A DNA stretch of 34,397 nucleotides from Actinomycetes bacterium. GTDB taxonomy: Bacteria > Actinomycetota > Thermoleophilia > Solirubrobacterales > Solirubrobacteraceae. The position numbers and the translations under genes were made by a program. Of the stretch, positions 6,762 through 34,316 are shown piece by piece (positions within the stretch are counted from its first letter, which is position 1; each line of letters starts with the position of its first letter). The stretch is taken from assembly GCA_021846845.1 (NCBI GenBank), contig JAJZWB010000029.1, positions 1 through 34,397 on the forward strand, in the 5' to 3' direction. Below the pieces are notes generated by a model. That model saw only the letters and a list, made by a program, of their open reading frames with translations, was not told where the DNA came from and searched no databases.

Positions 6762-6797
6762 GGCGCCCGACGGACACGGATGTGTGACCGGCTGTGA

Positions 6798-6836
6798 CGA
6801 TTCGGTGCCGGTTCGGCCCGGACCGGCACCGAATCG
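6798..6836. promoter_or_regulatory. Perfect 15-bp inverted repeat between yraN and comM
   Basis: Arms 6798-6812 and 6822-6836 are exact reverse complements (CGATTCGGTGCCGGT and its complement) around the 9-nt centre TCGGCCCGG. The element lies between two divergent starts, so it cannot be a terminator for either neighbour. It is about 36 bp upstream of each -10-like box. TGTGAC occurs just to its left (6783-6788 and 6793-6798) and the complementary GTCACA at 6857-6862. A dimeric repressor or activator site shared by yraN and comM-dprA is the simplest reading. Confidence 0.6.
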
Positions 6837-6872
6837 ACACATTCCGTCGCCGTCCTGTCACAGGTCGCGCCG

Positions 6873-6878
6873 TAGCTT
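6873..6878 (+). promoter_or_regulatory. -10-like box of comM
   Basis: TAGCTT ends 8 nt before ATG 6887 but only 2 nt before the in-frame ATG 6881. This favours 6887 as the start, and it also matches the family N-terminus (MLARV). Confidence 0.5.
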
Positions 6879-6886
6879 CGATGGCG

Positions 6887-8458
6887 ATGCTCGCCAGGGT
6901 CAGAACGTTCGCGATCGACGGGATCGAGCCGCGCCCGGTGTGGGTGGAGGTGGACATCCGCAGCGGTCTGCCCTCGTTCACGATCGTGGGTCTGGGCGAC
7001 ATCGCCGTGCGCGAGTCGCGGGAGCGGATCCGCTCGGCGATCCTCAACTCGGGCTTCCGCTTCCCCGACGGCCGGATCACGGCCAACCTGGCGCCGGCCT
7101 CGTTGCGCAAGGCGGGCCCGGGATTCGACGTGGCCCTCGCGCTCGCGGTGCTGGCGGCCAGCGCGCAGCTTCCGGCCGAGCCGCTGCGGGCCTACGCGGT
7201 CTTCGGCGAGCTGTCGCTAGGCGGTGAGCTGCGCGACTCCCCCGGCGCCCTGGCCGTCGCCGAGGGGGCTCGCCGGTTCCGCTGCGAACGCCTGATCGTG
7301 CCGCACTCACGCGCGCGTGAGGCGGCCCTGGTGGACGGCGTCGTGGTGGTCGCCGCCGATGGCCTGCGATCCGCCGCCGCGGTCATCTCCGGGGAGCGCG
7401 CGGGCGCCGCGTTGACGGCCGACAGCGGCGGCGCGGAGCGCGCACCGACCGGAGCGGAGCGGCATCGCCCGTCTGCCGCCGTCGGTGGCATCGGTCGCAT
7501 CGACCTCCGCGACGTCCGCGGCCACTCGCTCCCCCTGCTGGCCCTGCTGATCGCCGCCGCGGGCGGTCACAACCTCCTGATGGAGGGCGCGCCCGGGACC
7601 GGCAAGACGATGCTCGCGCGGCGGCTGGCGACGATCCTGCCGCCGCTCTCCAGAGAGGAGGCGATCGAGGTGACGCGGATCCACAGCATCGCGGGCCTGC
7701 ACTCCGACGGCCTGATCTCGGACCGGCCGTTTCGCGCGCCTCATCACACCATCTCCGCCGCCGGCCTGGCGGGAGGAGGGTCGCCGCCCAGGCCGGGGGA
7801 GGCCACCCTCGCCCACAACGGCGTGCTGTTCCTGGACGAGCTGTCGGAGTTCTCACGCTCGAGCCTGGACGCGCTGCGACAGCCCCTGGAGGACGGCCAC
7901 GTGACGATCGTGCGCGGCCAGCGCGCGCTTCGCTTCCCGACCGGCTTCATGCTCGTGGCGGCCACGAACCCATGCCCATGCGGGTTCGCGGGGGTTGACG
8001 ATCGCTGCGGTTGCGCCGAGTCCGATCTGAGGCGCCACCGCCGGCGGCTGAGCGGGCCGCTGCTCGATCGCATAGACCTGCTGGTCGACGTGCGGCGCCC
8101 GGACGCGGACGAGCTGGAGGGGCCGCCGCAGACCACATCCGCGGCGGCTCGTGAGCAGGTGATCCAGGCCCGCGAACGTCAGCGCCGGCGGCTGGAGGGG
8201 ACCGGAGCAGGTCGCAACGGCGAGCTTGACGCCGCCCTGGCGCGCGCGACCATCCGCCTCGACGTCGACGCCGAGGAGCATCTCGGTCGCGCGTACGCCA
8301 GCGGGCTGCTGAGCCCGCGCGGGCGCCACCGGGTGCTGCGCGTGGCGCGCACGATCGCCGACCTCGGCGGCCGGGATCGCGTCTCGCGGGACGACGTCCT
8401 GCTGGCGCTCAGCTTCCGTCAGCGCACCGGCGCCGACCCGATGGCATCCGCGGCATGA
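6887..8458 (+). CDS. comM: ComM/YifB AAA+ ATPase (magnesium-chelatase-like)
   Basis: A 523-residue hexameric helicase of the ComM family, which in naturally competent bacteria drives branch migration during integration of incoming DNA. The N-terminal Lon-protease-like fold (SGLPSFTIVGLGD, SLRKAGPGFDVALALAVL) is followed by the AAA+ core with Walker A GAPGTGKT (residues 234-241), FRAPHHTISAAGL, Walker B VLFLDELSEF, and the Cys cluster NPCPCGF...RCGC. The C-terminal helical domain ends with SFRQR. The protein is full length. It is probably co-transcribed and coupled with dprA, whose ATG overlaps the comM stop by 4 nt. Confidence 0.95.
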   Translation: MLARVRTFAIDGIEPRPVWVEVDIRSGLPSFTIVGLGDIAVRESRERIRSAILNSGFRFPDGRITANLAPASLRKAGPGFDVALALAVLAASAQLPAEPLRAYAVFGELSLGGELRDSPGALAVAEGARRFRCERLIVPHSRAREAALVDGVVVVAADGLRSAAAVISGERAGAALTADSGGAERAPTGAERHRPSAAVGGIGRIDLRDVRGHSLPLLALLIAAAGGHNLLMEGAPGTGKTMLARRLATILPPLSREEAIEVTRIHSIAGLHSDGLISDRPFRAPHHTISAAGLAGGGSPPRPGEATLAHNGVLFLDELSEFSRSSLDALRQPLEDGHVTIVRGQRALRFPTGFMLVAATNPCPCGFAGVDDRCGCAESDLRRHRRRLSGPLLDRIDLLVDVRRPDADELEGPPQTTSAAAREQVIQARERQRRRLEGTGAGRNGELDAALARATIRLDVDAEEHLGRAYASGLLSPRGRHRVLRVARTIADLGGRDRVSRDDVLLALSFRQRTGADPMASAA

Positions 8459-9771
8459 CGATGTCGCACCGGTCCGGCGAGCCATCCGCGACCGCAGCGC
8501 GTGCCTGCCCTGGCTGCCTGGCACGCACGTGGCTGCTGGAGCGGCTGTCAGCGCACATCGACGTGCAGCGTGCGCGAGCCGCGGAGCTGCTCACGCTCGA
8601 CGATCACGCGCTGATCTCGGCGGTCGCCGGCCGTCACGCGCCGGAGGTGCGCGACGCGCTCGCCGACTTCGATCCCGACCGCGCGCTGCGCCGCTGCGCC
8701 GCTGCCGGATTGACGCCGCTGTGCCGCTGCGATCCCCGCTATCCGGCCCATCTCGCCACGCTGCCCGCGCCCCCGGCCGTGCTGCACCTGGTCGGGACCA
8801 CGAGCGCTGACGGCCGTGAAGCCGTCGGTCGTCTGGCGGCGTTCACGGGCGCGCCGACGGTGGCGATCGTCGGTGCCCGACGGGCCTCTCCCTACACGCT
8901 GGAGAGCGCGGCCATGCTCGCCAGCGGGGTTGCGGCTGCCGGGGTCACGGTGATCAGCGGACTCGCGGCCGGTGTCGACGCGGCCGCGCACGCGGGGGCG
9001 CTTGAGTCCGCCGGGGCGACGATCGCGATCCTCGCGTGCGCTCCGGAGCGCTCCTACCCCTCGGCGACCCGCGTCCTGCACCGGCGCATCGCGGCCGAGG
9101 GCATCCTCGTCTCGGAGCTGGGCCCCGGCGTGCGGCCTCGGCGCTGGATGTTCCCCGCGCGCAACCGGATCATCGCCGCGCTCGCCGCGGTCACGGTCGT
9201 GGTCGCGGCCCGTCGCGGCTCCGGGGCACTGCTGACCGCGGCCTGCGCGCGGGAGCTCGGGCGTGAGCTCGGAGCGGTGCCGGGTCCGGTGCTCGCGCCC
9301 CTGTCATGGGGACCGCACCGGGTGCTGAGAGACGGAGCTCGACTGATCGCCGAGCCGGAGGACATCCTGGCGGCCCTTGCGCAGGCGGGCCCCGACGCTC
9401 CGTCGGGTTCGCCTGGGCCGGTTTGTCCGCCTGCGCCGTCGCCGCCTGGGCCGCTTTGTCCGCCTGCGCCGTCGGGGCCGTCGGGGCCGTCGGGGCCGTC
9501 CGGGCCGTGGGGGCCGTCGGGGCCGTGGGGGCCGTGGGGGCCGTCGGGGCCGTCGGGGCCGTCGGGGCCGTCGGGGCCGTCGGGGCCGTCGAAGAGGCTG
9601 CTGGATGCGCTCGCGGACGGGCTCTCGCCGTCACAGGCGTTCGGTGCCGCCGGGCTGGGCACGGCCGCCGGGCTGGCTGAGCTGGCCGAGCTGGAGCTCT
9701 CGGGGCGGGTGCGGCGCGGACCCGGCGGCGCCGTGATCGTGAGGGCTGTGGACGCGCGGCGGCGCGTGTGA
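8455..9771 (+). CDS. dprA: DNA-processing protein DprA with a collagen-like linker
   Basis: DprA binds incoming single-stranded DNA and loads RecA. The 438-residue protein has a Cys-containing N-terminal segment (CPGCLART), a SAM-like helical region, then the Rossmann-like core (AIVGARRASPYTLESA, VISGLAAGVDAAAHAGALES, SELGPGVRP, FPARNRIIAALA, GSGALLTAACARELGRE). A C-terminal winged-helix domain (about residues 380-438) is also present. Between core and winged helix sits an unusual linker, residues 320-379: two near-identical PGP(V/L)CPPAPS units and thirteen Gly-Pro-Ser/Trp triplets. The frame stays intact across it. A flexible or triple-helix-prone spacer is inferred. Confidence 0.93.
   Translation: MTMSHRSGEPSATAARACPGCLARTWLLERLSAHIDVQRARAAELLTLDDHALISAVAGRHAPEVRDALADFDPDRALRRCAAAGLTPLCRCDPRYPAHLATLPAPPAVLHLVGTTSADGREAVGRLAAFTGAPTVAIVGARRASPYTLESAAMLASGVAAAGVTVISGLAAGVDAAAHAGALESAGATIAILACAPERSYPSATRVLHRRIAAEGILVSELGPGVRPRRWMFPARNRIIAALAAVTVVVAARRGSGALLTAACARELGRELGAVPGPVLAPLSWGPHRVLRDGARLIAEPEDILAALAQAGPDAPSGSPGPVCPPAPSPPGPLCPPAPSGPSGPSGPSGPWGPSGPWGPWGPSGPSGPSGPSGPSGPSKRLLDALADGLSPSQAFGAAGLGTAAGLAELAELELSGRVRRGPGGAVIVRAVDARRRV
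9412..9474 (+). repeat. Two 30-bp near-identical repeats inside dprA
   Basis: Copies at 9412-9441 and 9445-9474 differ at one base and have a 33-bp period. Each encodes PGP(V/L)CPPAPS, including a cysteine. They lead directly into the 9-bp repeat tract. Confidence 0.85.
9475..9591 (+). repeat. Thirteen tandem 9-bp repeats inside dprA
   Basis: Thirteen copies of GGGCCGTCG, in a few of which TCG is replaced by TGG or TCC, run without interruption and encode (Gly-Pro-Ser/Trp)13. The unit length keeps the frame, so copy number can change by slippage without breaking dprA. The complementary strand also reads as Gly-Pro-Asp/His triplets, which is a by-product of the repeat. Confidence 0.95.
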
Positions 9772-10654: not shown

Positions 10655-10672
10655 CCAGCCGGGCTCGGCTGG
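10655..10672 (+). terminator. Hairpin after thiD
   Basis: CCAGCC and GGCTGG (6 bp, 6-nt loop) lie 11 nt after the thiD stop. There is no T tract, so its role as a terminator is weakly supported. Confidence 0.25.
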
Positions 10673-10693
10673 CGGGTGCCGCGGGTCGGCCGG

Positions 10694-10765
10694 GCGCAGC
10701 GGTTGGCGGGTGCGCAGCGGTTGGCGGGTGCGCAGCGGTTGGCGGGTGCGCAGGGGCTGGCGGAA
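10694..10765 (+). repeat. 18-bp tandem repeat (three perfect copies plus one degenerate)
   Basis: GCGCAGCGGTTGGCGGGT is repeated exactly at 10694-10711, 10712-10729 and 10730-10747, with a degraded fourth copy at 10748-10765. It lies in the 216-bp gap between thiD and the next gene. The gap holds no convincing gene. Confidence 0.95.
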
Positions 10766-32928: not shown

Positions 32929-34107
32929 TCACCGCAGCCGGATCATTCCGCGCCACGTGGACCGGTGCGGGCGGGTTCCGACGGTGACTCTCAACAGATA
33001 GGTGCCGCTGCGAATCCGATGCTCGCCCTGCAGCACGATCGTCGCCACGCCGGAGCGAGACAGCCGGGCGCTCCCGCGCGCGAGGATCAGGTTCCGGCGA
33101 GCGAGGGTGAGCGAAGCTTCGCCGTGTGCCGCAGGCTTCCATGTTCCGTCGGCGGGCACCAGTCGGCACACGATCTTGCCACTCGGCGCCTCTCGACAGG
33201 TCGGGACCTCGATCGGCCCTCGTGGCCCACTGGCGCCGCGACGGCCTCTGGCGCCGCTGGGTCCCGTGGCACCGCGGGGACCTGCCGCCCCCCGCGGTCC
33301 GGTCGCTCCTGGAGGTCCGGTCGCTCCCTGCGGACCGGTCGGCCCTGCCGGACCGGCGGCTCCCTGCGCCGCAGAGGCGCCGGCCGGTCCCGCTGGGCCC
33401 TGCGGTCCGGCGGGGCCCTGCGGTCCCGCCGGACCGGCGGGCAGTTGGGCGACCACCTCCAGACAGGCCTGGCAGCCCACCCGGTCGCCGAGGGCGCCGG
33501 TGACGAACACGTCATAGAACCCTGGGGCGGTCGAGGCGCCGATCGTGATCGGGACGTCCATCCGCTGATTGCTCAAGTCCGTGGGGGTGCCCACGCCGAT
33601 CCCGGACCCGGTGACCGCCACGCTCGCGCCCTTGAGTCCCGTGCCGAAGATCGTCAGGTCCTGGCTGGACCCTGCCGGCGCGATCTGCGCCGGAGAGACG
33701 GCCGTGATCGTCAGCCCGGCGGACGCGCACGCGGGTCCGAACTCCCAGAGGGCGGGATCCGCGTCGAGGGCGAGGGTGTAGCCGTTGAAGGCCCACTGGT
33801 TCACCGAGCCGACCGGGACCGTCACCGAGAACTGGGTCACACCAGGGAAGAACAGGGTCGGCTGTCCGCGATCGGCAGGGTTGGGGAGAAACCTATTGTC
33901 GACTCCGACCAGGATCTGGACGATGTTCTGCTCCTGACTCGTCGTCTGGAGCCCGAAGGTCATCGTGCCCGCTGCGGGGTTGTAGCTGACGCAGGCGATC
34001 GACGGCGTGATCGCGTAGGTCGTCGCCGACGCGCCGGCGGCTGTGAACGCCAGCGTGGACGCGAACGCGAGCACCGCTGCGAACGCCCGCAAGGCCCTGA
34101 TGCACAT
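32929..34107 (-). CDS. Secreted collagen-like repeat protein
   Basis: A 392-residue product with a signal peptide ([20 protein letters not shown], cut near ASA), a beta-rich N-terminal domain with two cysteines, an IPT/TIG-like region ([20 protein letters not shown]), then about 28 Gly-X-Y triplets ([19 protein letters not shown] and onward, with [19 protein letters not shown]) and a C-terminal beta domain ending [13 protein letters not shown]-like. Such Gly-X-Y tracts form triple helices in bacterial surface proteins. Met at 34107 follows a purine-rich AGGGG and gives the signal peptide at once; the frame open to 34227 is rejected. Unlike the dprA tract, the triplets here are not near-identical DNA repeats. 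Confidence 0.88.
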
Positions 34108-34208
34108 CCTGATCTCGATCCCCTCGACGGTTTTTGCGCACCTACGCTGCCGCCGCTCCGCGATCCAGCGGCCCGAGCCGCAGCGAGACGCATTATGGTG
34201 CAACCGCG

Positions 34209-34316
34209 GCCGCCGGACATCGGGCAAACGCCCGTCTCAGGAACGGTCAGAAGGGCCTCGTGAGCGTCGTGGCGCGCGTGCCGCCGCACATCGGGCAAAC
34301 GCCCATCTCATGAACG
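34209..34316. repeat. Two 37-bp direct repeats with an internal hairpin
   Basis: Copies at 34209-34245 and 34280-34316 differ at three positions (71-bp period). Each contains CGGGCAAACGCCC, in which GGGC and GCCC pair around AAAC. They lie upstream of the collagen-like gene, near the window edge, so further copies could exist outside. The 290-bp stretch 34108-34397 holds no gene I can support; a CCTGGGCCCAGG palindrome stands at 34321-34332. Confidence 0.85.

What the first reader, a model, noticed from the sequence alone, without database searches (positions are those of the whole stretch)
9412..9591. DprA interrupted by a repeat-encoded collagen-like linker
DprA cores are usually joined to the C-terminal winged helix by a short linker. 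Here 60 residues are inserted, encoded by two 30-bp repeats (each with a Cys) and thirteen near-identical 9-bp repeats giving Gly-Pro-Ser/Trp. The 9-bp unit keeps the frame, so strains may differ in linker length, possibly tuning DNA uptake or RecA loading.
Basis: seen in the sequence. Interest (0 to 1): 0.6.

Follow-up and report, generated by a model that had tools for sequence, protein, structure and literature searches.

The report
Repeat-lengthened linker in DprA
In one uncultured soil-type bacterium, the floppy joint between the two halves of the DNA-handling protein DprA has been stretched by a stuttering DNA repeat; the genome holds perhaps a hundred or more similar repeats, so this looks like tolerated genome noise rather than a device for tuning DNA uptake.

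Summary
dprA (8455-9771, +, 438 aa) has a 73-residue linker between its Rossmann core and winged helix, made by a 33-bp unit (not 30) in two copies plus thirteen GGGCCGTCG/TGG/TCC units. Linkers in 24 congeners are 21-27 residues, none repetitive; the 9-bp array occurs nowhere else in 28 genus genomes. It is not an obvious assembly error: the longest exact internal repeat is 46 bp. AlphaFold predicts the linker disordered between two well-folded domains.

(1) This genome is packed with minisatellites, about 43 strong arrays per Mb in samples, against none in 300 kb of a single-contig congener. Arrays inside coding-like ORFs are mostly multiples of three; others sit in FtsK, an HD-domain protein, an oxidoreductase and a P-type ATPase. 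(2) ComEC, the DNA-uptake channel, was not found in any of 28 genus genomes, though 105 of 119 in the class have it. (3) It misses Pfam's collagen cut-off, and DprA is dimeric, not trimeric.

Most likely: a recent, private, frame-preserving minisatellite expansion tolerated in a disordered linker; the precedent is Borg-element tandem repeats. Length variation between strains is plausible but untested.

The parts
8455..9771 (+). dprA, 438 aa
   Evidence: ORF; PF02481 E 1.2e-56 at aa 82-299, DprA_WH at aa 374-425; 41-53% identity to relatives
9403..9594 (+). expanded inter-domain linker, about aa 317-380
   Evidence: 73 aa between anchors ILAAL and LLDAL against median 22; AlphaFold pLDDT 41-60 for aa 311-370, over 90 on both sides
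9410..9474 (+). 33-bp repeat, 2 copies, one Cys in each
   Evidence: TRF, 96% matches
9475..9591 (+). 9-bp minisatellite, 13 in-frame copies of GGGCCGTCG/TGG/TCC giving GPS/GPW
   Evidence: TRF score 220; units listed; only place in own genome with this unit and in 28 genus genomes apart from isolated 2-mismatch hits
9474..9585 (+). G-quadruplex-like motif: 13 runs of 3 or more G on the + strand
   Evidence: Regular-expression scan, the longest of 4 such tracts in the window
6794..8458 (+). comM/yifB-type Mg-chelatase-like ATPase upstream of dprA
   Evidence: PF01078, PF13541, PF13335
9768..10643 (+). thiD downstream of dprA
   Evidence: PF08543 E 2.3e-76

Best explanation
A recent, lineage-private minisatellite expansion inside dprA. 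Shown: an in-frame 9-bp unit (plus a duplicated 33-bp unit) sits exactly in the predicted-disordered linker between the DprA Rossmann core and its winged helix, in a genome unusually rich in such arrays. Inferred: slipped-strand replication or unequal recombination at a GC-rich, G-run sequence made and copied the units; selection removed changes that broke the frame or a folded domain, and the linker tolerated the rest. The protein is probably still a working DprA whose winged helix is tethered more loosely. Because the genus appears to lack ComEC, its job is more likely RecA loading or other DNA handling than uptake of DNA by transformation.
For: Near-identity of 13 units with a single synonymous change and three copies of one nonsynonymous change points to recent copying. 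Linkers of 24 congeners are 21-27 aa and non-repetitive. The unit is private to this genome. Genome samples (489 kb) hold 21 arrays of TRF score 200 or more, about 43 per Mb and about 158 by extrapolation; the Markov null run on the first 237 kb sample gives none, and the single-contig congener G012 has 0 in 300 kb. Periods are multiples of three in 27/33 arrays in coding-like ORFs against 18/43 elsewhere, Fisher p 4e-4. Other arrays sit outside the Pfam domains of FtsK (just before FtsK_alpha), an HD protein, an FAD oxidoreductase and a P-type ATPase. The linker is predicted disordered, both domains folded. Motifs GAR and RNRIIAAL are intact. NucS mismatch repair, present here, is reported not to correct indels (PMC8228993).
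Against: NucS is also present in repeat-poor G012, so it does not explain why this genome is repeat-rich. No second strain or raw reads were available, so recency and variability are inferred. dprA departs from 6 of 73 otherwise conserved positions, second most of 28 sequences, which could mean relaxed constraint or partial loss of function. The coding test used a GC3 rule, not a gene caller.
Confidence: 0.8

Rival explanations
1. Functional variable linker (contingency-type device): copy number changes tune the reach of the winged helix and hence higher-order DprA assembly or RecA loading, and variation is selected.
For: The unit keeps frame and lies in the linker. In H. pylori DprA the C-terminal domain drives higher-order assembly and is joined by an 8-residue linker (PMC4489622), so reach could matter. 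Intragenic repeat number varies with source in Legionella (PMC2639597).
Against: No copy-number variation could be observed. Linker length varies widely without repeats in the order (19 to 86 aa), which suggests tolerance. Similar arrays are all over this genome. ComEC was not found in the genus.
Confidence: 0.1
2. Assembly or collapse artefact: the repeat is real but its copy number is wrong, or it is chimeric.
For: The window is from a 219-contig draft assembly; tandem repeats are a known source of assembly errors (title and abstract of PMC6868369).
Against: Longest exact internal repeat is 46 bp; no k-mer of 51 or more recurs, so an assembler with larger k passes through uniquely. The frame continues into an intact winged helix.
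Confidence: 0.07
3. True collagen-like triple helix that trimerises DprA.
For: 13 perfect Gly-Pro-X triplets and a sub-threshold Pfam Collagen match.
Against: Below the Pfam cut-off (20.4 against 27.2 bits). DprA dimerises, in H. pylori through its Rossmann fold (PMC4066776, PMC4489622). Replacing Hyp at the Y position lowers triple-helix Tm by 0 to 21 C (PMC7824840); that Ser and Trp are poor Y residues is from my own knowledge. Predicted disordered, although a monomer model cannot show a trimer.
Confidence: 0.03

Closest known systems
DprA/Smf (PF02481 core with C-terminal DprA_WH/DML1 domain)
   Same: N-terminal helical region, Rossmann core with GAR and RNRIIA motifs, C-terminal winged helix
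   Different: Linker 73 aa with tandem repeats; the reported linker in H. pylori DprA is 8 aa (PMC4489622), congeners have 21-27 between the anchors used here
Borg-element amino-acid tandem repeats (aaTRs; PMC9879509)
   Same: Pervasive recent repeats, units private to a locus, divisible by three in ORFs, making disordered regions
   Different: A bacterial genome assembly at about 72% GC, not an archaeal extrachromosomal element; some arrays in coding-like ORFs here are not multiples of three
Bacterial intragenic VNTRs such as those of Legionella pneumophila (PMC2639597)
   Same: In-frame tandem repeats inside a gene
   Different: Strain variation is documented there, not testable here
Bacterial collagen-like proteins
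   Same: Gly-Pro-X triplets
   Different: Below Pfam cut-off, short, in a cytoplasmic dimeric protein; a better candidate of that kind lies at 32929-34227

Membership tests
DprA | Rossmann-type DNA_processg_A core over the gathering score | tested here: met
   PF02481 191.7 bits against 29.6
DprA | C-terminal winged helix | tested here: met
   DprA_WH 22.0 bits, just under the 22.9 cut-off, but aligned along its length with relatives and folded with pLDDT 89-97
DprA | RecA and ssDNA binding, dimerisation | not testable with these tools
   Only motif conservation seen
Minisatellite / intragenic VNTR | Head-to-tail units of 9 bp or more, high identity | tested here: met
   TRF score 220, 94% matches
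Minisatellite / intragenic VNTR | Copy number varies between strains | not testable with these tools
   One genome of the species held; array absent in the other genus genomes
Collagen-like protein | Pfam Collagen over cut-off | tested here: not met
   20.4 against 27.2 bits
Collagen-like protein | Triple helix | not testable with these tools
   Monomer model only, disordered
Natural-transformation system | ComEC channel in the genome | tested here: not met
   PF03772 0/28 in genus, ComEC protein query 0/23 in genus against 14/14 in the order, PF03772 105/119 in class

The most novel reading that the evidence does not exclude
A bacterial lineage whose genome continually makes private, frame-preserving minisatellites (Borg-like), so that linkers of housekeeping proteins such as DprA and FtsK are being lengthened adaptively; the DprA linker is one selected outcome.
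Probability: 0.12. Interest if true: 0.55.

Novelty: new member of a known kind. Interest (0 to 1): 0.2.

Why it matters
As a DprA feature it matters little: it shows that the linker tolerates large, recent insertions. The wider pattern is more useful. A Solirubrobacterales genome with tens of strong minisatellites per Mb, next to a congener with almost none, gives a natural comparison for asking what controls repeat formation in bacteria that use NucS-type mismatch repair, and how repeats seed disordered linkers. A genus that keeps DprA and RecA but apparently lost ComEC also bears on what DprA does outside transformation.

Tried and rejected
DNA folding of the array gave no excess structure on either strand (z 0.67 and 1.11), so hairpins are not a special cause; only the G-run pattern stands out. 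Mismatch-repair content does not explain the repeat density, because NucS is present in both repeat-rich and repeat-poor congeners and MutS_V matches occur only in 6 of 28, always as paired ORFs. Strict literature searches for DprA linker work and for 9-bp bacterial minisatellites returned nothing useful. The genome-contig scan returned mostly unrelated Gly-Pro-rich proteins but named close relatives as Solirubrobacterales MAGs. Phage, plasmid and viral collections were not searched, since nothing pointed to mobile DNA.

Full report
Observation. The ORF 8455-9771 (+) encodes 438 aa with a DprA core (PF02481, aa 82-299, E 1.2e-56) and a C-terminal winged helix (DprA_WH, aa 374-425, 22.0 bits, just under its cut-off). 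Between them lie two tandem arrays: a 33-bp unit in two copies at 9410-9474 (96% matches) and a 9-bp unit at 9468-9591 (13.8 copies, 94% matches). In frame there are 13 triplets Gly-Pro-Ser/Trp, encoded nine times by GGGCCGTCG, once by GGGCCGTCC and three times by GGGCCGTGG. Chance is excluded: a 21-bp repeat pattern gives 13 hits where shuffles give 0.08.

Is it an assembly error? The longest exact repeat inside is 46 bp and no k-mer of 51 or more recurs, because the Trp and TCC variants break the array. An assembler using larger k has one path. The frame then enters an intact winged helix. Reads could not be inspected, so copy number is not proven.

Comparison with relatives. Sixty-one whole genomes were searched and DprA tails recovered for 52 relatives besides this one. 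Between fixed anchors, linkers have a median of 22 residues; 24 congeners span 21-27; only three genomes of the order, all outside this genus, exceed 40 (44, 56 and 86 aa), without repeats. The nearest DprA, 53-54% identical, has a 27-residue Pro-rich linker. The 9-bp unit occurs nowhere else in its own genome and in no other of 28 genus genomes beyond isolated hits at two mismatches. So the feature is private and the linker position tolerates length change.

Structure. AlphaFold2 with 28 sequences (mean pLDDT 86.2) gives both domains above 90 for most residues and the linker at 41-60, without secondary structure. The GAR and RNRIIAAL motifs are kept; six of 73 otherwise conserved positions differ, second most among the 28 sequences, two of them at the start of the linker.

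The genomic setting changes the reading. TRF on 489 kb of the own genome found 21 arrays of score 200 or more and 63 of 120 or more; this extrapolates to about 158 and 474. Short and long contigs agree (41.5 and 45 per Mb). A first-order Markov null run on the first 237 kb sample gave none. G011, a congener, has 26.7 per Mb; G012, a single-contig congener, has 0 in 300 kb; G037 has one in 300 kb, which is a CRISPR-like array of 55 regularly spaced repeats. Of 76 arrays with score 100 or more, 45 have a period divisible by three (p 3e-6 against one third). Within ORFs that look coding by GC3 the figure is 27 of 33, elsewhere 18 of 43 (Fisher p 4e-4). Such arrays lie outside the Pfam domains of FtsK (aa 299-332, ahead of FtsK_alpha at 370), an HD-domain protein tail, an FAD oxidoreductase tail and a P-type ATPase tail. 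The dprA array is therefore one of many. The coding calls are heuristic.

How it arose (inferred). Slippage or unequal exchange of a GC-rich unit, followed by loss of frame-breaking variants. The + strand of the array has 13 runs of three or more G, the longest G-quadruplex-like tract in the window; G-quadruplex-forming minisatellites are unstable in yeast lacking Pif1 (PMC2673046, abstract), but this is only an analogy. Ordinary hairpin folding is not in excess. NucS is found in this genome and is reported unable to correct indels (PMC8228993), but it is equally present in the repeat-poor G012, so it cannot by itself explain the density. MutS_V matches are paired ORFs in 6 of 28 genomes; whether they are canonical MutS was not tested.

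Does it tune DNA uptake? The Pfam ComEC family was found in none of 28 genus genomes but in 105 of 119 of the class, including 13 of the 15 same-family genomes searched. A ComEC protein from the same family found nothing in 23 genus genomes and hit all 14 genomes from other families of the order. RecA is present in 27 of 28. Transformation through ComEC is therefore unlikely here, and DprA is more likely a RecA mediator or has another role. Published work assigns dimerisation, DNA binding and RecA contact to the N-terminal and Rossmann parts, and higher-order assembly to the C-terminal domain (PMC4066776, PMC4489622, PMC9769556), so a longer tether could affect assembly, but nothing here shows it.

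Is it collagen? The Pfam Collagen match is below its cut-off. DprA is a dimer, and substitution of Hyp in the Y position generally lowers triple-helix stability (PMC7824840). I reject this reading, with the caveat that a monomer model cannot exclude a trimer.

Known kinds. The best precedent is the Borg element study (PMC9879509): pervasive recent repeats, private to each locus, divisible by three in ORFs, creating disordered regions. Intragenic repeat variation in bacteria is established (PMC2639597). This case is a new member of a known kind. Verdict: real, private, probably neutral; interest 0.2.

Noticed in passing
whole genome samples, e.g. L166 9834-10052, L218 10707-10869, L229 7521-7652: The genome is unusually rich in minisatellites (about 43 per Mb at TRF score 200 or more), as are congener G011 and perhaps G016 (one 20-kb sample), while G012 and G015 samples have none at that score.
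   Followed up: partly
genus of G000 (28 genomes): ComEC was not found in any genome of the genus although it is common in the class; RecA is kept in 27 of 28 and DprA in most.
   Followed up: partly
10666-10763: A second tandem array (18 bp, 5.6 copies, score 124) lies just after thiD, about 1.1 kb from the dprA array.
   Followed up: no
32929-34227 (-): A 432-aa ORF with a signal-peptide-like stretch and a GPAGPQ-type collagen-like region, a better candidate for a real bacterial collagen-like protein.
   Followed up: no
L260 (G000:C43:32000-36500): Two adjacent ORFs each with a MutS_V match, with two such matches also in five congeners, in a genus where NucS is the common mismatch-repair enzyme.
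   Followed up: no
L138 and L136: DprA of two genomes in another family of the order has long, non-repetitive linkers of 86 and 56 residues.
   Followed up: no
L217 11041-14945: A CRISPR-like array of 55 repeats spaced 69-75 bp in genome G037.
   Followed up: partly
L142 (G000:C138): A second, 37% identical DprA-like protein in the same genome, with counterparts in many relatives.
   Followed up: no
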